IMG/VR virus record: IMGVR_UViG_3300034198_017445
Coordinates: 1-64,000 of that record
DNA: 64,000 nt
From: a virus
Strand: one strand, 5' to 3'
Below, in pieces: positions 1,220-59,749 of the stretch; the stretch's first letter is position 1; every line of letters begins with the position of its first letter. The position numbers were made by a program, and so were the translations under genes. The notes below the pieces were generated by a model. That model searched no databases. It saw only the letters and a list, made by a program, of their open reading frames with translations, and was not told the origin of the DNA.

Positions 1220-4200
1220 ATGGCAACTGCAGAACTGGAACATCGGCTACTTGAATCCTCAAGCGGTTACGATCGTATCGATCGTGATGCGGGGATTATT
1301 TATGGCGTGAAGGTGCTCGGGCTGGTCAGCAAGAATGACCGCAGGTATCTTCCCAAGGCTGTTTCTGATGCACTCCCCCTGTATGAAGGGGTCGCAGTCA
1401 ACATCGACCACCAACGCGACGATCCGAATTCTCGCGTCATCCAGGATCGTCCTATGCGCGATCGTTGGGGTGTTCTTCGCAATGCTCGAATCATCGACGG
1501 CGAAATCTACGCCAATCTGCACTACATCAAATCGCACCCCATGACCGAAATGCTGGTTGAGGCTGCGGAGAAGTTTCCTGAAACGTTCGGCTTGTCCCAC
1601 GATGCAACCGGCGACGAACGGGCGATCAACGGGGAACGTCAGGTTATCGAAATTTGGCGAGTCAATTCGGTTGACGTTGTCTCGCGACCGGCAACCAATG
1701 CTGGTTTGTTTGAGTCTGTCGAAATCCCCATTCACTCTGCTTTTGGTAGTCGCATGAAAAAATCGCTCAAAGAAGCCTTTTGCAGGACCGGCAAGGGCGG
1801 CAAGGTCGACAACTCGTGTTCTGGCAAGAAGGGGACCGGTCGTGGTCGATCCACGGGTGCCAAGGGCGCTTCTGCGTCAAAGGGTGCCACGGGTGCTGAC
1901 GCTGCTTCCGGTGCGTCTGGCGTAAAGGGGGCTGGCAAGAAAAAGGCGACCAAGGCTTCTAAGGCGACCAAGGGAACCAAAGCCACGGAGGTTCCTGTTT
2001 CACCTGATCTGAAGGCGAAGCTGAATCACTTGGCTGCTAGCAGCAACATGCCGAAGCACTTCAAGCCTGCTATGAGCCATCTTGAGCTGAACGGCAAAAC
2101 CTACAAGCTGGCAAAGGCTGGCGCATGGTCGCACTCTTATGTGGCTGATGACGGCACCAAGGCTATGTACCACAACGGCGACGGTGGTCACTACATCGCG
2201 CACGGGACTGATTCTGACGGCGATCCTAACTACGTTCCTGCGCATGCATCGAATCAGCCTGGGGTGCATTCTCGCGACGGTAAGCCGTTTGGCGAAGAGA
2301 ACAAGTTCTCGGCTTTTCACAACAACGAACTCTATACAAACATGGGGGTCGCTACTGGGATCAAAGACGGGAAGAAAAAGGATCAGTTTGAAGACTCAAG
2401 CGGAAATAAAATCTTCCGCGATCACGAGACCAGTGTTTGGACTGACGACAACGGCAAGTATATCGGTGGGCCTGCTTCCAAGACAACCAAGAAGGCTGCT
2501 GCCAAAACCGCCAGTCCAAAGTCATACGAGGCTCGCGTTGCTGCTTATGAAAAGCAGGGAATGACGACCAGTGATGCTCAAGGCGTGGTTGATGCAGAGG
2601 ATCTAAAAGCCGATCCTAATTCACCAATCGGAAAGCCTGTCAAAAAGCCGACGACTTCTAAATCTTCAAGTGCTTACGATGTGGCTGGAAGCATCAAAAA
2701 GGATTTGGAGATCAATCCTGTCACCACTTCTAATGCTCGGTACGAAGTGGGTGGTTTTGGCAATACGTGGCTTACCAATACGCACGGCCATGGGAATCAC
2801 GATGTCGGAAGCCCAACGTACAAAGATGCCGTAAATAAGTATCACGAAACAGCCAAGGGCTTGATTGATGCTGGTCACTTTGATTCGGCTGAGCACGCTC
2901 AGAATTATCTCGATTCGTCTTATGGTCGTCACTTGGCTGATGGGATGCATGGCCATGGAGACTTGTCAAAGATTCGTGGTCTTTCAAAGACCATTGCAAT
3001 TTACAAAAAAGCTGCAGGTATCAGTTCAAAGAGTTCGCCCAAAACCGCCAAGCCTGCGAAAGCTGCTAAGTCTCTCGATGTAACCGGCGCGAAGGTCTTT
3101 CACGCTACCGACGAGAAAGCCTACGACGACAAAGTTCGTATGTGGAAAACTGCCGGTGCGAAGATCAAGACGATTGGCGATCGCACTCATGTTTTGAATA
3201 CCGACGATGGTTCTGTCATGGGGTACATCGACAAACCGAAGTCTGGTTCCTCGGGATCTACCAGCAACTTGACGATCGTCGGAAACGATCCGTCTGCTCA
3301 GGTCATGACGCTTGGTGGAAATCCTGTTACCGCTAAGGCAAGTGACAACTTGACGATCGTCGGAAACGCGGCTGGCAAAGCAGCCAAGACTGCGAAACCA
3401 TCAGCAAAGACTCAGCCTGCTGCATCGTCTGGATCTGATAACTATTTCCAGGACTATGACGGCAATACGTACTACATGCCATCGTCGTCGGGTGATGCAA
3501 GCAAAAAAAGTCCATCCGAGAAATCAAAGTCTAAATCCGCCTCAAGTGGTATTCATTCCATTCTTGGTGCTATTGCGACTCCAGGTAGTTCTGACTCGTT
3601 GGGGGGCGTGTTCAAAAACAGATACACTCCAAAAATAGGGACCGACTCAAAGGACGTTCAAGCTGCGATTGACAAAGCAGGGTTTGAGTTTGAAAGCATG
3701 AATGGTTTCGCCCAGGAGTGGAAGCATCCGAAGACCGGTGAAAAGGTAAGTGTTTCTTATCATCCACTCACGAATAAAGTGATGCATATGCATGTTACTC
3801 CAGGCAAGGCTGCGAATCCGAAGTCTTCGTCTGGTGCTAAGGATGCTCTTGGTTCTGTCTTGACGCACAAGCCTGTCTCGCACAATCCAGGGCTGTATAT
3901 GAACGACTCGGGTGCTTCCGAGAAAGCGATTCACGATGCGCTTGTGGCTGACGGCTACAGGCTGAAGCCTGCAAACTCTTACGGTCATTACGTCAAAGGG
4001 CTGTACGAAAAACCTGCAGGTCCGTATGGATCATCAACCGCATCAATCAGTTTTGATCCAAAGACGGGGCTTCCGAGGTCTGTTAGCAAGTCATCGAGTG
4101 TCATGAAAGATTCGTTCAATCCAAAGGGGGCAGCAATGCCAAAGTCAACGTACAGAGAATTGGTTGAGTCCAACGAGCAGTTTGGTCGGTTCCTTGAGTC

Positions 4201-8449: not shown

Positions 8450-10270
8450 ATGAGTTACGTTATCCCTCAACCGTATGATTCCGATTTGACGCTAATCGCT
8501 GAGCAAACAAACACGGCGTATGGTCTATCGTTTTTGGTGCTCGCAGATGCATTGGCGGCGCGTGCTCTGATCGGAGTTTCTAACGGCCTGAATGCTGATA
8601 TGACTCGGACATCGACTTCGAGTAATTACATCGGGATAGGGCAAAAGGTTTTTACATTTGCCGCATCCTCCAATCTCGGATGGGCTTTAGGTCAAAGAAT
8701 TCGAGCGACTGCTCTGCCATCTTTTGAATGGATGGAAGGGCAGATAGACGCGGTCACTTCTACTTCCGTTTCCTTTTTTGTTGTCGATGGCTACTTTGGA
8801 AGTGGCACCAAAACAAGCTGGACGTTGTCAATCTCTGGCGAGCCTGGGATGAATGGCAACGATGGGCTGGACGGAAGCGTTGGTCCTGCAGGAACAATCT
8901 CGATTGGAACGGTAACCACTGGCGCGCCTGGATCATCAGCGTCTGTGATCAATGTTGGGACGGCATCGGCTGCTGTTCTTAACATCACTATCCCTCGGGG
9001 CGATACTGGGGCAAGCGGTTCTGGTTCCGGTGACGTATCGAAGTCGGGCACTCCGTCTACTGGTCAGGCTGCGGAGTGGAACGGCGCTTCGACGATCATC
9101 GGCGTGGCTGTTGTTGGGACCGGTTCCTACGTCAAGGCGACGAGCCCCACGTTGGTCACTCCTGTTCTGGGAGTGGCATCGGCGACCACAGTCAACAAGG
9201 TTGCAATCACCGCGCCTGCAACTGGTGCAACGCTCACGATCCAAGATGGGTTCACGCTTACAGTATCCGGCAACTCAACGCTAAGTGGGACAAATAGCGG
9301 CGATGAAACTGGCGCGTCGATTCGATCAAAGCTGGGCATCTCAACGCTTTCAGGTTCGAACACGGGCGACCAAGATCTATCGGCTTATGCGACGATCGCA
9401 TTCGTAAATTCTGCGGTCACTGGTCTGCTTGATCTCAAGACAACGCTGGATTGTTCTTCAAATCCCAACTACCCAGCGGCGTCGAAAGGCGATTGCTATC
9501 CGGTAACCGTAGCTGGAAAGATCGGCGGCGCTTCAGGAGTATCCGTCGAAGTAGGCGACATGATCGCTTGCTTGGTCGATAATGCGGGTGGTACTCAGGC
9601 TGCGGTTGGATCGTCGTGGTTTATCCTTGAGCACAATCTTGTTGGCGCTGTCATCGTAGGCGGTGCTCTTGGAACTCCATCAAGCGGAAACTTAATCAAC
9701 TGCACGTTTCCGACGCTCAATCAAAGCACGACCGGAAATGCTGCGACGGCTACCGCGCTGCAAACTGCGAGGACGATCAACGGCGTTGCGTTCGATGGAA
9801 CGGCAAACATCACCATCGGATGCGCCCTGGGCAATGTAACGGGCTTTGGTACTGGTGTGGCGGCGGCGCTTGCGTTAGCTACCAATGGGGCTGGTGGTGT
9901 TTTGGTTTTGGCTTCAGGTGGTCTTTTGTCATTGCCTGGAACCCTTCGGATGCCAGTCGAGACGCTGACTTACGGCGCGAGCATCGCGGTCGATATCTCG
10001 GTGAGTAACAAGAAAAAAGTTACGTTAACTGGAAGCCCGACGTTCTCTGCGCCGATTGGAACTCCAGCCGACATGGACCAGTTAATTTTTCGCATCACGC
10101 AAGGCGGAACTGGATCATACACTCCTGGCTGGGGTTCGATCTATAAGTTTCGCGGTCTGCTCGCTTCAATCACTTGGTCGACTGCGGTTGGAGCCAAAGA
10201 CTACATCACGTTCGTTTACGATTCATCCGTTCCAGAATGGGATTGCGTGGCATTCTCGAAGGGTAGTTGA
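8450..10270 (+). CDS. Tail fibre-like protein with collagen-like segment
   Basis: 606 residues with a GGAGGTGGTGACGC leader before the ATG. Residues about 130-148 are Gly-X-Y repeats (GEPGMNGNDG and onward), followed by long Ser/Gly/Thr-rich repeats with recurring SGTNSGDE and SGSNTGDQ units, then a compact C-terminal beta region. Collagen-like linkers and GTNSGD-type repeats are typical of phage fibres and appendages that contact the host. It is placed among head and connector genes, so it could be a head fibre rather than a tail fibre. Host binding is inferred. Confidence 0.65.
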   Translation: MSYVIPQPYDSDLTLIAEQTNTAYGLSFLVLADALAARALIGVSNGLNADMTRTSTSSNYIGIGQKVFTFAASSNLGWALGQRIRATALPSFEWMEGQIDAVTSTSVSFFVVDGYFGSGTKTSWTLSISGEPGMNGNDGLDGSVGPAGTISIGTVTTGAPGSSASVINVGTASAAVLNITIPRGDTGASGSGSGDVSKSGTPSTGQAAEWNGASTIIGVAVVGTGSYVKATSPTLVTPVLGVASATTVNKVAITAPATGATLTIQDGFTLTVSGNSTLSGTNSGDETGASIRSKLGISTLSGSNTGDQDLSAYATIAFVNSAVTGLLDLKTTLDCSSNPNYPAASKGDCYPVTVAGKIGGASGVSVEVGDMIACLVDNAGGTQAAVGSSWFILEHNLVGAVIVGGALGTPSSGNLINCTFPTLNQSTTGNAATATALQTARTINGVAFDGTANITIGCALGNVTGFGTGVAAALALATNGAGGVLVLASGGLLSLPGTLRMPVETLTYGASIAVDISVSNKKKVTLTGSPTFSAPIGTPADMDQLIFRITQGGTGSYTPGWGSIYKFRGLLASITWSTAVGAKDYITFVYDSSVPEWDCVAFSKGS

Positions 10271-16952: not shown

Positions 16953-17366
16953 ATGCGTACTGATGGCGAAGCAAACCTGGAAGCTGACGACTGGACAAAC
17001 CCGTTTGTGCGTGGGGCTGGCGAGTGTCCTGCGTTCGTGCAATCAAAGATTGGTCTGTATCCTTCGGTGTTCTATAAGTACCGTAGGATTGCTCCACGAA
17101 TGATCGAGAGGCTTCACAAGGAGTTTCGCGATAGCACGTCGAACAAAGATGCCGGAACTTCTATCGGAGTTGCGCAGCGAATCGTTTTCGAGCACGTTAC
17201 GTCGTGGTCGTTCGGTGAGTTGAGCCGAGAACGAATCGAGCAGTTGATACATCCGTTGCTGCTCAAGGTTTTCTGGCAAATCATGCAGTCGGACCCAACT
17301 GATCCGATTCCAGAAAAGTATTTACCAGAGTCGGAAGAGGATGCAGATAGCGACGAAAAAAAATAA
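16953..17366 (+). CDS. Tail assembly chaperone, upstream ORF (G-like)
   Basis: 137 residues, mostly helical, acidic C-terminal tail ending in Glu/Asp/Lys. It sits between tube and tape measure and ends in a run of eight A just before its stop, with the next ORF in the -1 frame. This is the layout of lambda G/GT, where two chaperone forms guide tape-measure assembly. A TACAAT box at 16912 may be a promoter element. Confidence 0.7.
   Translation: MRTDGEANLEADDWTNPFVRGAGECPAFVQSKIGLYPSVFYKYRRIAPRMIERLHKEFRDSTSNKDAGTSIGVAQRIVFEHVTSWSFGELSRERIEQLIHPLLLKVFWQIMQSDPTDPIPEKYLPESEEDADSDEKK
17357..17363 (+). other. Probable -1 programmed ribosomal frameshift site (A AAA AAA)
   Basis: The zero frame reads GAA AAA AAA TAA, so a slippery heptamer occupies the two codons before the stop. 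A -1 slip enters the frame of the ORF at 17366 without meeting a stop, making a fusion of about 275 residues. The pattern matches known G/GT frameshifts. Re-initiation at the overlapping TAATG is the alternative. Confidence 0.65.
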
Positions 17367-17782
17367 TGACATGGTTCGCGGTGTCGCTTTCAAACCCGGC
17401 GCTGGCATCGCGGCCATGTGATCTATGTCGGCAGATCATGTTCGACGAGGAAACTGGTATGCCGTATGAATCAAAGCCTGGATCCAAAACCAAGTATGAC
17501 GCTCGCGTCGGGAAGGTTCCCTGCGAGACGTCTATTGGTTGCAAGAAGGGGCATTGGAAAGACAAGCCTGATCTAAATCCTTCGCAGGAAGCTGTAATCG
17601 ACTTGTTCTATTCTTCGCGCGCCACGGGGGGAGCGTTTTTGTCTCGTGCCGAACGGCGCGATTGGTGGCTGCTTACTATTTTTGCGCGTCTTCAGGCCAT
17701 CTCCGAGGCAAACGAGAGATCCGCATCGTCGTCGCTTTTGAGTTGCATCACTGCGATGCAGACGGGGGCAGTCAATGGCTGA
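17366..17782 (+). CDS. Tail assembly chaperone, downstream ORF (T-like) with Cys cluster
   Basis: 138 residues if started at its own ATG (TAATG overlap); more likely made mainly as the C-terminal part of a -1 frameshift fusion. It contains four Cys (PCDLC, then VPCETSIGCKKG) that could bind zinc, and a helical C-terminal half. Overlaps the tape measure start by eight bases. Cys clusters are unusual but not unknown in this position. Confidence 0.65.
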   Translation: MTWFAVSLSNPALASRPCDLCRQIMFDEETGMPYESKPGSKTKYDARVGKVPCETSIGCKKGHWKDKPDLNPSQEAVIDLFYSSRATGGAFLSRAERRDWWLLTIFARLQAISEANERSASSSLLSCITAMQTGAVNG

Positions 17783-40066: not shown

Positions 40067-40375
40067 GTGAAGACTACTATTTTGATTGGCGTGTTGTTGG
40101 CAGCGGTTCGGATTTGGCTTGGGTTTAACATCGAGCCTGAATCGTTTCGCTGGGACCAAGTCTTCAAGGACGCGGCGCACTTGTTCATGGGTGGTCTTGC
40201 TGTCGCGTGGTGGTTCAATAGGTATGAGCTGACCGACGAAGACTGGGACGATACCGAGGACAACAGTGCTCTGTTTGAGGCGCTGACGTGGTGTCTTTTG
40301 CAACCGTGGCAATGGTGGTTGTTTTGGTCGCTTAACGCGATTGAGGTTGCTGTCGCTGTCCTGAGTCGAATCTAG
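40067..40375 (+). CDS. Small membrane protein
   Basis: 102 residues from a GTG with AAAGAGG upstream. Two or three hydrophobic spans: residues 3-18, 36-50 and a Trp-rich C-terminal span (QPWQWWLFWSLNAIEVAVAV), separated by an acidic loop DEDWDDTED. Its stop codon overlaps the first element of the pseudoknot array. Function unknown. Confidence 0.55.
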   Translation: MKTTILIGVLLAAVRIWLGFNIEPESFRWDQVFKDAAHLFMGGLAVAWWFNRYELTDEDWDDTEDNSALFEALTWCLLQPWQWWLFWSLNAIEVAVAVLSRI

Positions 40376-40675
40376 CTTGCTCAGCGGCTTTGTTGCGGAG
40401 ATGGGTCGGTTACGCATGCCTGCTCGGAGGCGTTGTTTCTGAGGCGATAGACGCGCGTTCGCTTCGTGCCTGTCCTGAGGCTTTGTATCTGGAATAGAAG
40501 CCGCTAGTGAACCTGCCTGGAGGTTTTGTTTCCTTGACGGAATTGAGTCTGGCTTATTGCCTATCAAGCGGCGTAATTGCTTGGAGTGCGATCCATTTGA
40601 GCCTGCCATGAGGCTTTGTTTCGTGGACAGGAATTCAGCATGATACAATGCCTGCCTAGCGGCTTTGTTGCTGGG
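40375..40675 (+). CRISPR. CRISPR-like pseudoknot-repeat array 1 (7 units)
   Basis: Seven 26-nt units starting at 40375, 40418, 40468, 40511, 40559, 40601 and 40650. Each fits NNN-TG-(6 nt)-NNN'-DTYGTW-(6 nt'), an H-type pseudoknot: a 3-bp stem (GCC/GGC, or ACC/GGT in unit 4) and a 6-bp stem that differs between copies while remaining paired (for example TCAAGC/GCTTGG, CCATGA/TCGTGG, CCTAGC/GCTGGG). Unique spacers are 17, 24, 17, 22, 16 and 23 nt. No cas gene is adjacent; a similar array lies beside the Cas12-like gene 18 kb away. It ends 33 bases before a metallopeptidase gene. Confidence 0.7.
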
Positions 40676-40708
40676 ATCATTCGAATCTAATACCAAGCGA
40701 GGCAGGTA

Positions 40709-41272
40709 ATGGCACGAGTAATTCGTTGGCGGTTTACGAAGGAGGCTGGTACCAATGGATCCAGTTTTAAGGCCGATGCCATAACCCAGGTGATGATCCC
40801 TCGGTTCCTGCGGTACTGGGATGTGGATTTCCAGCAGTTGACAACGATGGCAGGAACGCCACACGTCACGTTTCGGCTGACGACTCGGACGGTCAGTACG
40901 ATGTGGACGAACGGTCCGGTGATCCATATAAACGCCAAGTTCAAATGGGGCACTTCGCTCGCGGCGCGTGAGCAAATGGGACTGTGCCTATGTCATGAGG
41001 TTGGTCACTGGTTGTCGCCATCGAATCCGATTCACGCTGCCAGTGTTGGAAACGTCATGTTCGCTCAGGTTGGCGATCCGTACCTAAATTGGACGCTGGT
41101 CGACATGAAGTGGTTTGGCATGCTTCCGTGGCGATCCACCTTACGTCCGTGGCACGAGAAAACGCACTGGTATCCCTTACCAAAGGTTGCAATGGGGCTG
41201 TCGGGGCATGAAGATCACGAGATTCTGGAGCCTATCGTGCTTGGTTGCGGTAAGAATCATCGAAAAAATTGA
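40709..41272 (+). CDS. HExxH zinc metallopeptidase-like protein
   Basis: 187 residues. CHEVGHWLSPSNPIHAAS holds a HExxH zinc motif with another His nine residues after the second zinc His. The preceding strand (GPVIHINAKFKW) matches the edge strand of zincin folds. GGCAGGTA precedes the ATG. It is directly downstream of array 1. It may be a host-targeted protease or a virion-associated peptidase; no signal peptide is visible. A Glu in the HExxH supports catalytic activity. Confidence 0.7.
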   Translation: MARVIRWRFTKEAGTNGSSFKADAITQVMIPRFLRYWDVDFQQLTTMAGTPHVTFRLTTRTVSTMWTNGPVIHINAKFKWGTSLAAREQMGLCLCHEVGHWLSPSNPIHAASVGNVMFAQVGDPYLNWTLVDMKWFGMLPWRSTLRPWHEKTHWYPLPKVAMGLSGHEDHEILEPIVLGCGKNHRKN

Positions 41273-56343: not shown

Positions 56344-58092
56344 TTGAGCGTTAAAAACTGGGTCTATGGTGGTAAGGTTCCTACGCCACAAGAGGCTGTC
56401 GATGAGGCGATCTTCACGGCGCACAAGTATCGAAACAAGCTGTGTGAGTTGGAGCTGGAAAAACGGAAGCGGCACTACGATTTGTTGCGTCGGCTTGCTC
56501 CTGAGTTTGTTGCTGCTGAGGAAACGGTCGCGACGTTGGAGGCGGCGCTGGGTGCCTGTCGCGAAAAGATCCAAGCGGAACGGGTGAAGCAGCGGACGAA
56601 AACTCCGACTGGGTGCAAGACCTGGATTGCCGAAAGTGCGGACATCAAATCGCGGTTAAAAGATGCGCGTGCAGTCTTGAAGGCTGCGAAGCATGCGGCT
56701 TACGATGATCCTGCTGTCAAGGCTGCGATGGATGCGAACAGCGAGCAGCATAAATCCGAGTGTGCTCAAGCCAAGCAGGAGTCCGGGCTGTACTGGGGGA
56801 CCGAAGCGGTGATCCGTGATTCGTGTCGATCGTTTGCGAGTGGTGCTCCACCGAAGTTTGCGCGGTATGAAGGGCGCGGTCAGTTGGCTGTCCAAGTCCA
56901 AGGCGGGATGGATTGTTCCAAGGCGATCGATGAGAACACGTTGGTCTACATCGTTGGCGAGGGTCGGAAGCGAACGGCAAAGGTTCGCATTGCTTCGGAC
57001 GGTGGGCGACCGGTGTTCGCGGATCTACCGATCGTGTTCCATCGGGACTTGCCTGACGGCGCTATCAAGTGGGCGTTCCTGCAGAAGCGGATGCGTGCGA
57101 ACAAACCGAAGTACAGCTTGCGTCTTGCGATCGACGTTGCTGATCCTGTCGATGTGCAGGTTCCTCCGGGTGAGGTTGCGATTCACGTCGGCTGGCGAAA
57201 GCACGGGGACGGATTAAAGGTCGTGACTTGGCTCGGGAGCGACGGCGAGAAAGGTTCGCTCGTGCTTCCGGCTTCTCATTGCGAGGACTATCTCAAGCTG
57301 GACAAAATCAAGTCGGAGCGTGACATCGAATTCGGAAAGGCGATTGATCATTTGCGTGGGTGGCTGGAGTGTCGTGGCGATGTGCCTGAGTTCTTGGAGG
57401 AGGTTCGATCGCACTTGCATGCGTGGAAGTCTCAGAAGCGGTTGGCTGCTCTCGTGGTGGCTTGGCGCGATGCTCGCTTCGATCCGTGGGATATTGATAT
57501 TTTCGAGTACCTGGAGGCGTGGCGAAAGAAGGACAAGCATGCATGGCAGCACGATGCTCGGTTGCGGGAGCGAATCGCTGGTCGTCGCAAAACGATCTAC
57601 CAGACGTTTCTGTGTGGTCTTGCTCGGAGGTACGGAGTGGCGATCGTTGCTCCGATCGATGCGAAGGAGTTGACCGAAAACAGCGAGCCAGAAGACTTGA
57701 CGGCGGATCCAACGTTGCAGCATCGGCGTGCGAAGTGGGCTGCTGTATCGACGCTGATTCAGTACGCTCGCGAAAAATGGCCTGAACGCTGCATCGAAGT
57801 GGACGGTGCGAACATGAGTCGCCAGTGCATGCGGTGCGGTCACGTCAACGAACCGCAAGGCAAGCGGGTGCAGTGCCATGGTTGCGGTGCTACTTGGGAT
57901 GTGGACATCAACGCGGCTACGGTTATGCTCGAACGTGGTCAGGCTGCGGCGCGTGATGGTGCTCTTGATGCGTTGGTTGAAGCGAAGGAAAAGAAAGCCG
58001 AGGCTGCTCGCGAGAAACTTGCAAAGATGATACAGGCGCGGCGTGATGCTTCTGCTCGCAAGCGTGCTGAGATGGAGGGCAGCGAGGCTTAG
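56344..58092 (+). CDS. Compact TnpB/Cas12-type effector (Cas12m-like), probably nuclease-dead
   Basis: 582 residues from a TTG start; GCGGGAG lies eight bases upstream, matching the leader of nine other genes. N-terminal 145 residues are coiled helices. SGLYWGTEAVI (148-158) and a beta-rich WED-like domain to about 265 follow. RuvC-I region: VAIHVGWRKHGDGLKVVTW, with His281 (CAC) where the family has Asp. RuvC-II: YGVAIVAPID, with no Glu at the catalytic place. Zinc ribbon: CMRCGH and CHGCG (495-514), inserted before RuvC-III WDVDINAA (Asp521 kept), exactly the TnpB/Cas12 order. The GWR motif and SGLYWG recall Cas12m/V-U1. With two of three catalytic acids missing, RNA-guided DNA binding without cutting is the likely activity. 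A pseudoknot array starts 11 bases after the stop. No Cas1, Cas2 or transposon ends were seen. Confidence 0.85.
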   Translation: MSVKNWVYGGKVPTPQEAVDEAIFTAHKYRNKLCELELEKRKRHYDLLRRLAPEFVAAEETVATLEAALGACREKIQAERVKQRTKTPTGCKTWIAESADIKSRLKDARAVLKAAKHAAYDDPAVKAAMDANSEQHKSECAQAKQESGLYWGTEAVIRDSCRSFASGAPPKFARYEGRGQLAVQVQGGMDCSKAIDENTLVYIVGEGRKRTAKVRIASDGGRPVFADLPIVFHRDLPDGAIKWAFLQKRMRANKPKYSLRLAIDVADPVDVQVPPGEVAIHVGWRKHGDGLKVVTWLGSDGEKGSLVLPASHCEDYLKLDKIKSERDIEFGKAIDHLRGWLECRGDVPEFLEEVRSHLHAWKSQKRLAALVVAWRDARFDPWDIDIFEYLEAWRKKDKHAWQHDARLRERIAGRRKTIYQTFLCGLARRYGVAIVAPIDAKELTENSEPEDLTADPTLQHRRAKWAAVSTLIQYAREKWPERCIEVDGANMSRQCMRCGHVNEPQGKRVQCHGCGATWDVDINAATVMLERGQAAARDGALDALVEAKEKKAEAAREKLAKMIQARRDASARKRAEMEGSEA

Positions 58093-58102
58093 GGTATGGT
58101 TC

Positions 58103-58663
58103 TCCTGCTCATGGGAGTTGTTCATGAGATAATGATCTGGAATATGCTAATGCCTATCAATCGGCTTTGTTGCTTGAAGACGAACTATGTGGCTGATCGG
58201 TGCCATCGTTACCGAAAATATGGGTCTGTTGCGTTATCGCCAATCGCGAGGCTTTGTTTCGCTGATATCGATGCAGTTCACCGCCTGCTCGGAGGCTTTG
58301 TTTTCGAGATACAACGACGTGGTTGCTTTTGATTTTATGCCTGCTAGGTGGCATCGTTACATTGGCTCGAACTTGAATTTCATTCATTGCGTGCGATGGG
58401 GCATCATTCCATTGACATACCCGTAAGCCTGCTCGGAGGCGTTATATCGGAGACAAAAAGCATACGGGGAGACTATTTGGACTGCGATTGATTTGCCTGT
58501 CGTGAGGCGTCGTATCGCGAAAACGAGATTGATCACATGATTCCGCCTGCGGACCGGCTTCGTTGGTCCGGCGCAAGGACATCGTTGCCTGCTCAGAGGC
58601 ATTGTGTCTGAGACGTTCGCGAGAACTTCGATCTGTCGCCTGCCATGAGGCTTTGTGTCATGG
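58103..58663 (+). CRISPR. CRISPR-like pseudoknot-repeat array 2 (12 units), next to Cas12-like gene
   Basis: Units start at 58103, 58152, 58191, 58239, 58283, 58339, 58389, 58427, 58495, 58545, 58587 and 58638. Each 26-nt unit can form an H-type pseudoknot: 3-bp stem, TG (or TA), 6-bp stem, loop DTYGTW. Stems co-vary: TCC/GGA with CTCATG/CATGAG in unit 1; GGC/GCC with ATCGGT/ACCGAA in unit 3; CGGACC/GGTCCG, CTCAGA/TCTGAG and CCATGA/TCATGG in units 10-12. Unique spacers are 23, 13, 22, 18, 30, 24, 12, 42, 24, 16 and 25 nt. The base after every unit is A or G. It lies in the effector transcript. The last unit ends two bases before the ribosome-binding site of the gene at 58676. Confidence 0.75.
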
Positions 58664-58675
58664 ACGGAGTCCATA

Positions 58676-58948
58676 ATGCCCGAAAGTGAAACCAAAAACA
58701 TACCGATCAGCTCGGTCACAAATGCTCTGTGGGAGTGCCGTGATTGCGGCTGCGAGTCGAGCGATGTGTACTGGTTCAGTTGTTTGGGTGCGAGGCTCAA
58801 GAAGCCGAGGTGCGCGTGCTGCCATGAGAAGGCGGTCGTCTCTGGTTCGTCTGTTTACGAAGAAGGGACTATTGAAATGTCTGGTTGCCAGCAACGGGTG
58901 TACGGTAGGCATGTTCGGGGAATCTACTTGTTTCGGGAGGAGAAGTAA
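58676..58948 (+). CDS. Small zinc-ribbon protein embedded between the arrays
   Basis: 90 residues from the ATG at 58676 with GGAG seven bases upstream. ECRDCGCESSDVYWF and CACCHEKAVV make a four-Cys zinc ribbon, with a basic GARLKKPRC loop between. Lying inside the effector/array region, it may be cotranscribed and could assist the system (RNA processing, DNA binding or regulation). This is inference from position. A pseudoknot right before its ribosome-binding site could also control its translation. Confidence 0.6.
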   Translation: MPESETKNIPISSVTNALWECRDCGCESSDVYWFSCLGARLKKPRCACCHEKAVVSGSSVYEEGTIEMSGCQQRVYGRHVRGIYLFREEK

Positions 58949-58957
58949 CTTGCTTGT

Positions 58958-59683
58958 GCCTGTTCGGAGGCATCGTATCCGTGACGACCACTGTTTTACC
59001 CGCCTGCGCTGGGGCGTCGTTTCGGTGAGTGTGACTACACAATCTCCTGCGCGGTGGAGTTGTAACCGTGGCCAGATTAGCGATTTTGCTTTAAGCCTGC
59101 ATGGAGGCATCGTATCTATGACCCCATTGTGCCGTGTTCATTGCCTGCTCGGAGGCGTCGTATCCGAGATGAAACATTTGCTATCTCGTTTTCATTGCCT
59201 ACCGTGAGGCGTTGTTTCATGGATCCGACCATAGCTTCCGGCGTGGCTTTGTAGCGTCGATGGCCTGATTGCGTGCGCCTGCTTGGAGGCTTTGTTTCCT
59301 TGGCTCAATACGATCAGTGAGAATTTTGCCTGCTCAGTGGCGTTGTAACTGCGATCCAGGATTTGGTTGGCGTATCGCCTGCTTGGAGGCTTCGTTTCCT
59401 GAACATGATGCATCGCTGCTCAGTGCCTGCTCAGCGGCTTTGTTGCTGGGATGAAAAGTCACTTTGCCATCTATCGCCTGCGGACCGGCGTGGCTGGTTC
59501 GACGTCAGCCATTTTTTGTAATCGTCACGAAACTGTTTCATGACGGTTTTGTCCTGCGCATCGGACTTGTTGGTGCGACAACGCGGAAAATGTGGAAAGT
59601 ATTGATGGTGCTCGGATGAAATTGGAATCGTCACGAAACTATTCTGTGACGTGTTTTGCCTGCTCGGAGGCTTTGTATCCGTG
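58958..59683 (+). CRISPR. CRISPR-like pseudoknot-repeat array 3 (14 units)
   Basis: Units start at 58958, 59002, 59045, 59095, 59143, 59197, 59234, 59277, 59328, 59377, 59425, 59476, 59552 and 59658. Same 26-nt pseudoknot plan as arrays 1 and 2. Covariation includes TCC/GGA with CGCGGT/ACCGTG (unit 3), CATGGA/TCTATG, CCGTGA/TCATGG, CGGCGT/GCGTCG, CGGACC/GGTTCG and CGCATC/GGTGCG. Four units keep only four or five pairs of a repeated parent such as CTCGGA or CTTGGA. Spacers are mostly 11-28 nt; the last two gaps are 50 and 80 nt and contain another repeated hairpin. It ends 66 bases before an early promoter. Confidence 0.75.
59520..59657 (+). repeat. Paired hairpin repeat at the end of array 3
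   Basis: AATCGTCACGAAACT occurs at 59520 and 59626, each followed by a short arm that can pair back (GTCA with TGAC; GTCAC with GTGAC) and then GTTTTG directly before the last two pseudoknot units. It may be a trailer or a processing element. Confidence 0.6.
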
Positions 59684-59749
59684 ACAGGTAGCTCTAGCAG
59701 ACCGCCAAATTCGAGCGATAAAATACTCCAAGTTTCCGTATTTACTGTA

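What the first reader, a model, noticed from the sequence alone, without database searches (positions are those of the whole stretch)
40375..40675. Distant third array with no effector beside it
Seven units of the same pseudoknot type lie 16 kb upstream of the effector, between a membrane protein and a metallopeptidase gene. If they are guides, one effector serves arrays at separate loci. If not, the element has a wider role in this phage, for example RNA processing or translation control.
Basis: seen in the sequence. Interest (0 to 1): 0.8.

Follow-up and report, generated by a model that had tools for sequence, protein, structure and literature searches.

The report
Distant Cas12m guide array in phage
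A phage carries a CRISPR-type DNA-binding protein (a Cas12m relative) and, 16 kb away from its gene, a set of seven guide-RNA-like units whose letters have all changed but whose folded shape has been kept, which suggests that one protein uses guides scattered over the genome.

Summary
In detail: seven 28-nt H-type pseudoknot units lie at 40375-40677 (+), 15.7 kb upstream of the effector gene (56344-58092), and are not chance (6 hits; shuffles gave 0 in 994 of 1000, never more than 1). The effector is a Cas12m (type V-M) homologue by sequence (E 3.5e-45) and predicted fold (Z 20-23), with a broken catalytic triad (H-A-D). The units match the published Cas12m2 crRNA scaffold feature for feature, and Cas12m relatives on other viral contigs have ordinary CRISPR arrays with the same scaffold. 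Unusual: the window's units are only 57-67% identical within an array, yet 94% of base pairs are kept through compensatory changes, and they are packed at 43-50 nt instead of 73. Other effector-bearing phages (G030, G035) also carry dispersed solitary units, mostly just after stop codons. Best reading: array C is a functional crRNA array read with the upstream gene and served in trans by the distant Cas12m, which blocks transcription at unknown targets. No target, promoter or expression evidence was found. One 62-kb contig (G032) has such units but no effector, so an RNA anti-CRISPR role for some units stays open. New variant of a known kind.

The parts
40375..40677 (+). Array C (the finding): seven 28-nt Cas12m-type crRNA scaffold units at 40375, 40418, 40468, 40511, 40559, 40601, 40650, separated by 14-22 nt
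40067..40375 (+). Gene directly upstream of array C (102 aa, hydrophobic, probably membrane protein); its stop codon overlaps the first unit by one base
   Evidence: no family match
40709..41272 (+). Gene downstream of array C (187 aa, HEVGH metallopeptidase-like motif)
   Evidence: no family match
56344..58092 (+). Effector: Cas12m (type V-M) homologue, 582 aa; RuvC triad replaced by H281-A436-D521; zinc ribbon C495/C498/C511/C514; H233-R234 equivalent to Cas12m2 H269-R270
58103..58665 (+). Array A: 12 units, first one 10 nt after the effector stop codon
58676..58948 (+). Small Cys-rich (zinc-ribbon-like) ORF, 90 aa, between arrays A and B; the 3' flank of the last unit of array A runs into its start
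58958..59685 (+). Array B: 14 units, first one 9 nt after the stop codon of the small ORF

Best explanation
Array C is a functional, remote crRNA array of a phage-encoded type V-M-like (Cas12m) system. It is probably transcribed by read-through from the gene whose stop codon it touches. The Cas12m made 16 kb away binds each pseudoknot scaffold in the transcript, the transcript is cut into single units, and the 14-22 nt that follow each scaffold act as guide. Because the effector lacks the RuvC catalytic residues, the complex should bind matching DNA and block its transcription rather than cut it. Shown here: the units, their structure conservation, the family of the effector, the match of the units to the Cas12m2 scaffold, and dispersed units in other effector-bearing phages. 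Inferred: transcription, processing, loading in trans, guide use, the targets. The arrays look hard-wired: no cas1 is in the record and the repeats have drifted far apart while each kept its fold, as expected of old guides kept by selection rather than newly added ones.
For: Effector: phmmer to Cas12m chain 23vw_A E 3.5e-45 and Cas12m2 8hio/8hhl E 7e-32; predicted model (mean pLDDT 78) best matches are Cas12m structures, Z 20.4-22.7, next Z 15.0. Scaffold: PMC10442227 gives stem, flipped A(-24), G(-23):A(-2) pair, 6-bp pseudoknot -22..-17/-8..-3, C(-1), guide, 17-bp heteroduplex. Window units have the same order in 28 nt: G at position 5 in 28/33, A at 27 in 28/33, C or T at 28 in 28/33. Cas12m2 H269/R270, which read C(-1) and G(-23), align with window H233/R234, invariant in the relatives. 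Relatives: L035 (34% identical effector) and G031 have ordinary 73-nt-period arrays with scaffold GCCTGCGCAGAGGCTTTGTTTCTGCGAC; Rctr197k and Allomeiothermus Cas12m arrays have the same architecture. Covariation, 33 units: 93.9% of cells paired vs 69.0% shuffled, 73 double changes vs 21, 0/500; array C keeps 0.937 of pairs vs 0.576 +/- 0.047 expected for the same number of random changes, highest of 5000 simulations 0.762. Dispersal: G030 and G035 have an effector, arrays, and 4 and 7 solitary units elsewhere; 13 of 17 clusters or solitary units start within 20 nt after a stop codon, random mean 1.6.
Against: No target found in the phage itself, in related phages, in 50,697 phage records or in plasmids. 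Some gaps between units (9-11 nt in arrays A/B, 14-15 nt in C) are short for a 17-nt guide unless it runs into the next unit. Unit C4 pairs at only 4 of 6 pseudoknot positions. No sigma-70-like promoter near array C. No RNA data. The G032 record has units and no detectable effector.
Confidence: 0.74

Rival explanations
1. RNA anti-CRISPR decoys: the units mimic repeats of a host or plasmid V-M system and trap its Cas12m, as Racrs (solitary repeat units) do for other types.
For: Repeat mimics in phages are established for types I-C, I-E, I-F and V-A (PMC10651486). G032 and fragments L041/L048 have units without an effector. Single units in L041/L048 sit tightly between genes, and in L041 the sequence after the unit is a ribosome-binding site and start codon rather than a free guide.
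Against: The window phage has its own Cas12m with two adjoining arrays of the same units; a decoy would also trap that protein. 33 separately drifting units with guide-sized gaps are more than a decoy needs. Mimics are expected to stay close to one host repeat; these diverge to 57-67% identity.
Confidence: 0.1
2. The units are 3'-UTR or intercistronic RNA elements bound by Cas12m or another protein to process, stabilise or control mRNAs, with no guide role.
For: 13 of 17 clusters or solitary units begin within 20 nt after a stop codon; the region after the last unit of array A covers the start of the next ORF; no targets found.
Against: Position after a stop codon is equally expected of read-through crRNAs. 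Tandem runs of 7-14 units with guide-sized gaps are not needed for processing. Relatives have the same scaffold in ordinary CRISPR arrays with long spacers.
Confidence: 0.08
3. Array C is a decaying remnant of an older CRISPR array without present function.
For: No target; diverged repeats; C4 with two mismatched pairs.
Against: With 3-8 substitutions per unit in paired columns, pair retention is 0.937 against 0.576 expected without selection, never reached in 5000 simulations; compensatory changes in 5 of 6 pseudoknot pairs within array C alone. The simulation starts from a relative's repeat as stand-in for the ancestor.
Confidence: 0.06
4. Pseudoknot antitoxin array of a type III toxin-antitoxin system (ToxI-like).
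For: ToxI antitoxins are also tandem pseudoknot repeats (own knowledge).
Against: The scaffold matches Cas12m crRNA feature by feature and the gene beside arrays A/B is a Cas12m; no ToxN family match in the record (though the control genomes did not ring either).
Confidence: 0.01

Closest known systems
Type V-M CRISPR-Cas (Cas12m; MmCas12m2, GoCas12m, MsCas12m)
   Same: Effector family by sequence and predicted fold; crRNA scaffold architecture; guide 3' of the scaffold; no cas1 in the record; binding-only action expected; known from plasmids and some prophages (PMC11656645)
   Different: Repeats within one array only 57-67% identical and structure-conserved; 28-nt units without the 5' part of the repeat; 43-50 nt period; several arrays, one 16 kb away; catalytic triad H-A-D, whereas D-E-D, H-D-D and N-D-D are reported (PMC11013384)
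Phage Rctr197k Cas12m homologue and array (KX853510.1)
   Same: Phage-encoded, about 31% identical effector, same scaffold architecture, far-end repeats drift while keeping pairing
   Different: Full 73-nt period, mostly near-identical repeats (93% mean identity), array beside the effector, D-E-D triad intact
RNA anti-CRISPRs / solitary repeat units (Racr)
   Same: Lone CRISPR-repeat-like units in phage intergenic regions (PMC10651486)
   Different: Here the phage has its own cognate effector and tandem arrays with guide-sized gaps
Viral CRISPR mini-arrays
   Same: Viral crRNA units that use an effector encoded elsewhere
   Different: Mini-arrays copy host repeats exactly and hold one or two spacers (PMC11656645); array C has seven diverged units and the effector is in the same genome
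TIGR-Tas stem-loop arrays
   Same: Phage guide arrays with variable but consistently palindromic structural units (PMC12045711)
   Different: Different protein (Nop domain), box C/D guides, no Cas12-type pseudoknot

Membership tests
Cas12m effector family (type V-M) | Full-length sequence homology to Cas12m | tested here: met
   23vw_A E 3.5e-45 over residues 21-532; Cas12m2 E 7e-32; GoCas12m E 3.6e-25
Cas12m effector family (type V-M) | Cas12m fold | tested here: met
   Cas12m chains rank 1-4, Z 20.4-22.7, next best Z 15.0; Foldseek E 2.4e-33
Cas12m effector family (type V-M) | RuvC triad of a reported kind (D-E-D, H-D-D or N-D-D); a variable trait within the family rather than a strict criterion | tested here: not met
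   H281-A436-D521 by alignment: one further loss, still consistent with binding without cleavage
Cas12m effector family (type V-M) | RNA-guided DNA binding or silencing | not testable with these tools
   Needs biochemistry
Type V-M crRNA scaffold | Stem, flipped base, G:A pair, 6-bp pseudoknot, C(-1) before the guide | tested here: met
   All features in order across the 33 units, with exceptions in single units
CRISPR array | Near-identical repeats at regular spacing | tested here: not met
   Mean identity 0.57-0.67 within arrays against 0.93-1.00 in Cas12m relatives with ordinary arrays; gaps 9-78 nt
CRISPR array | Unique spacers that match invaders | tested here: inconclusive
   Gaps are unique, but no target found in the phage and plasmid collections searched
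CRISPR array | Adaptation module in the system | tested here: not met
   No Cas1 in the record; control rang in 9 genomes. Typical V-U/V-M loci also lack spacer-acquisition genes (PMC11013384)
RNA anti-CRISPR (Racr) | Solitary repeat mimic without its own cas effector | tested here: not met
   Seven tandem units and a cognate effector in the same record
RNA anti-CRISPR (Racr) | Inhibits a host CRISPR system | not testable with these tools
   Host unknown
Type III toxin-antitoxin (ToxIN) | ToxN-type toxin gene beside the array | tested here: inconclusive
   No match to PF13958 in the record, but no control genome rang

The most novel reading that the evidence does not exclude
Some phages have turned a type V-M CRISPR system into a fixed set of guide-RNA genes. 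Arrays are trimmed to about the size of the mature guide RNA, broken up and scattered behind phage genes, each unit keeps its fold by compensatory change, and a catalytically dead Cas12m uses them all as a programmable repressor with long-lived targets instead of an updatable memory.
Probability: 0.35. Interest if true: 0.82.

Novelty: new variant of a known kind. Interest (0 to 1): 0.62.

Why it matters
CRISPR arrays are usually found by looking for identical repeats. These arrays would be missed that way, because only the fold is conserved. If the reading holds, phage genomes may hide dispersed crRNA genes, one effector can serve loci kilobases apart, and each repeat's kept pseudoknot marks it as in use. 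It also gives a natural series from ordinary 73-nt arrays (G031, L035) through mixed ones (G030, G035) to fully trimmed, diverged arrays (this phage), suited to testing how a CRISPR system becomes a fixed regulator.

Tried and rejected
(1) Chance repeats: rejected by shuffles. (2) Rfam: no family at gathering score. (3) Self-targeting by the guides: best matches in the own record equal control (15.92 vs 15.87). (4) Targets in terminase relatives, the phage collection and plasmids: nothing beyond chance; a Bradyrhizobium plasmid hit at E 0.5 covers a unit, not a guide. (5) Spacer targets of the longer ordinary arrays of G035 and L036 in phages: no match that pointed to a target. (6) Close effector relatives in viral contigs with the single window protein: none. 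(7) Pattern hit L002: inside a coding region, no pseudoknot. (8) ToxIN. (9) Host by terminase: only distant matches, 30% identity or less, so the host is unknown. (10) genome-contig scan with the effector alignment: one Chloroflexi locus, L039, no clustered array recognised. (11) Literature searches for degenerate Cas12m or phage arrays with diverged repeats gave no description of this arrangement in the held library; that library is not complete. (12) Correction made on the way: two units (A4, B8) were first placed 1-2 nt off and were corrected; all later counts use the corrected starts.

Full report
1. The observation. Positions 40375-40677 hold seven units of 28 nt with the plan GCC-T-G-nnnnnn-GGC-nTTGTT-nnnnnn-A-C. 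The first three bases pair with positions 12-14 and positions 6-11 pair with 21-26: an H-type pseudoknot. A scan for that shape, with weak sequence terms, finds three clusters in the 74,334-base virus record: array C (7 units, the finding), array A (58103-58665, 12 units) and array B (58958-59685, 14 units). In 1000 dinucleotide shuffles of the array C region the scan gave no hit in 994 and one in 6, against six in the real sequence. A covariance model built from the 33 units recovers exactly those 33 in the record at E<=0.1.

2. The structure is under selection. On 33 units, 93.9% of pair cells form against 69.0% after shuffling partners, with 73 double-changed cells against 21, and sliding the partners by 1-3 columns drops pairing to 35-45%. 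The same holds for array C alone. Compared with the repeat of relatives L035/G031, array C units carry 3-8 substitutions each in paired columns, yet keep 0.937 of pairs; random placement of the same number of changes keeps 0.576 +/- 0.047 and never exceeded 0.762 in 5000 simulations. So array C is not a relic drifting freely. This test assumes the relatives' repeat stands in for the ancestor.

3. The effector. ORF 56344-58092 is the only effector found in the record. It is a Cas12m homologue: 23vw_A (Cas12m) E 3.5e-45, Cas12m2 E 7e-32, GoCas12m E 3.6e-25. An AlphaFold2 model from a seven-sequence alignment (pLDDT 78, pTM 0.50) matches Cas12m structures at Z 20.4-22.7, well above the next family at 15.0. 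The overall rmsd is large because domains are placed differently, so this supports the family and not details. The RuvC positions read H281, A436, D521. Reported Cas12m triads are D-E-D, H-D-D and N-D-D (PMC11013384), so cleavage is not expected and binding is.

4. The units are Cas12m crRNA scaffolds. In the Cas12m2 structure (PMC10442227) the scaffold is a stem, a flipped A(-24), a G(-23):A(-2) pair, a 6-bp pseudoknot between -22..-17 and -8..-3, C(-1), then the guide, of which 17 nt pair with DNA. The window units have each feature in the same order in 28 nt. Cas12m2 His269 and Arg270, which read C(-1) and G(-23), align with His233 and Arg234 here, invariant in all relatives aligned. Viral contigs with Cas12m relatives at about 24-34% identity have ordinary CRISPR arrays whose repeat 3' part is the same scaffold, e.g. 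L035 GTCACAAT-GCCTGCGCAGAGGCTTTGTTTCTGCGAC. The same holds for phage Rctr197k (annotated CRISPR) and the Allomeiothermus plasmid. This comparison settled what the units are.

5. What is unusual. In relatives with ordinary arrays, repeats are 93-100% identical and the period is 73 nt. In the window mean identity within an array is 0.57-0.67 and the median period 46-49 nt. Most gaps are 14-23 nt, about the size of the guide in a mature crRNA. G030 shows an intermediate: its downstream array begins with three ordinary 72-76-nt repeats and continues with mostly trimmed units at 46-56 nt, and its upstream array is trimmed throughout. G035 keeps identical 71-nt repeats at one end and compensatory-changed, closer units at the other. 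A stepwise trimming of arrays is therefore plausible; that direction is inference.

6. Dispersal. Array C units are not closer to each other than to units of arrays A and B (p=0.72; C6's nearest is A12 at 93%, C7's is B11 at 93%), so the three arrays are one family. Units far from the effector are not peculiar to this phage: G030 has four solitary units up to 59 kb from its effector, and G035 has seven. Of 17 clusters or solitary units in the three effector-bearing phages, 13 begin within 20 nt after the stop codon of an open frame on the same strand, against 1.6 expected at random positions; random positions include coding DNA, so the contrast is somewhat inflated. Array C starts on the last base of a stop codon. 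With no promoter-like site nearby, read-through from the upstream gene is the likely source of the RNA.

7. Co-occurrence. All 27 records with a related terminase lack both effector and units; most are fragments and share only the 42.5-53.3 kb module with the window, so this is weak evidence. Among model-positive records of 20 kb or more, six of seven have a Cas12m gene (G000, G028, G030, G031, G035, G041). The exception is G032 (62 kb, no end repeats found), with six units and no Cas12m or TNB-domain match. L041 and L048 are fragments with single units. These exceptions keep a decoy (Racr-like) or host-effector use open for some phages.

8. Targets. None were found: own record, related phages, phage collection (52, 53), plasmids. 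The host is unknown. This is the main gap: the functional claim rests on architecture.

9. Membership. The effector belongs to the Cas12m family by sequence and fold, with a further-lost catalytic triad. The arrays carry the Cas12m scaffold but fail the defining test of a CRISPR array (near-identical, regular repeats). I therefore do not file array C as a CRISPR array; it works like one and most likely derives from one.

10. Verdict. A new variant of a known kind: a phage V-M-like system with structure-conserved, sequence-diverged, compact and dispersed crRNA units.

Noticed in passing
L068 (G030:66333-66360): A solitary crRNA-type unit is followed directly by what looks like the T-arm and 3' end of a tRNA (aggggttcgactcccct); ARAGORN finds no tRNA there. 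The unit may have landed in, and split, a tRNA gene.
   Followed up: partly
L085:7243-7514 and 9502-9647: Another viral contig with a Cas12m relative flanked on both sides by arrays of the same pseudoknot plan (CCGATCGCCGCCGGTTCAAnGCGGCGAG), with GAG instead of GAC at the end.
   Followed up: partly
G032:596-812, 4159-4185, 17086-17189, 17508-17535: 62-kb virus record with scattered diverged units, some close to a cluster of about nine tRNA genes, and no Cas12m found.
   Followed up: partly
L041:366-393 and L048:3769-3796: Two related phage fragments share a single unit right after the same gene. In L041 a ribosome-binding site and start codon follow at once, in L048 about 50 extra bases lie between, so the guide region differs by an insertion or deletion.
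   Followed up: no
window 59520-59546 and 59626-59653: Two copies of a hairpin-forming sequence (AATCGTCACGAAACT...GTGAC/ATGAC) lie between the last units of array B and do not fit the unit plan.
   Followed up: no
L004:2619-2873: Phage Rctr197k has a second annotated CRISPR with an unrelated repeat (GTTGCCGGCTCACCCGCTTCAGCGTTCGATCGCGGG) beside a separate transposase-like gene (978-2381), possibly another RNA-guided effector.
   Followed up: no
window 58676-58948: A 90-aa Cys-rich zinc-ribbon-like ORF is enclosed between arrays A and B; the flank of the last array A unit overlaps its ribosome-binding site and start codon.
   Followed up: no
L074 (G035:8870-8936): The sequence after a solitary unit (8917) resembles the sequence 47 nt before it (18 of 20), as if the unit had been added with a short local duplication.
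   Followed up: no
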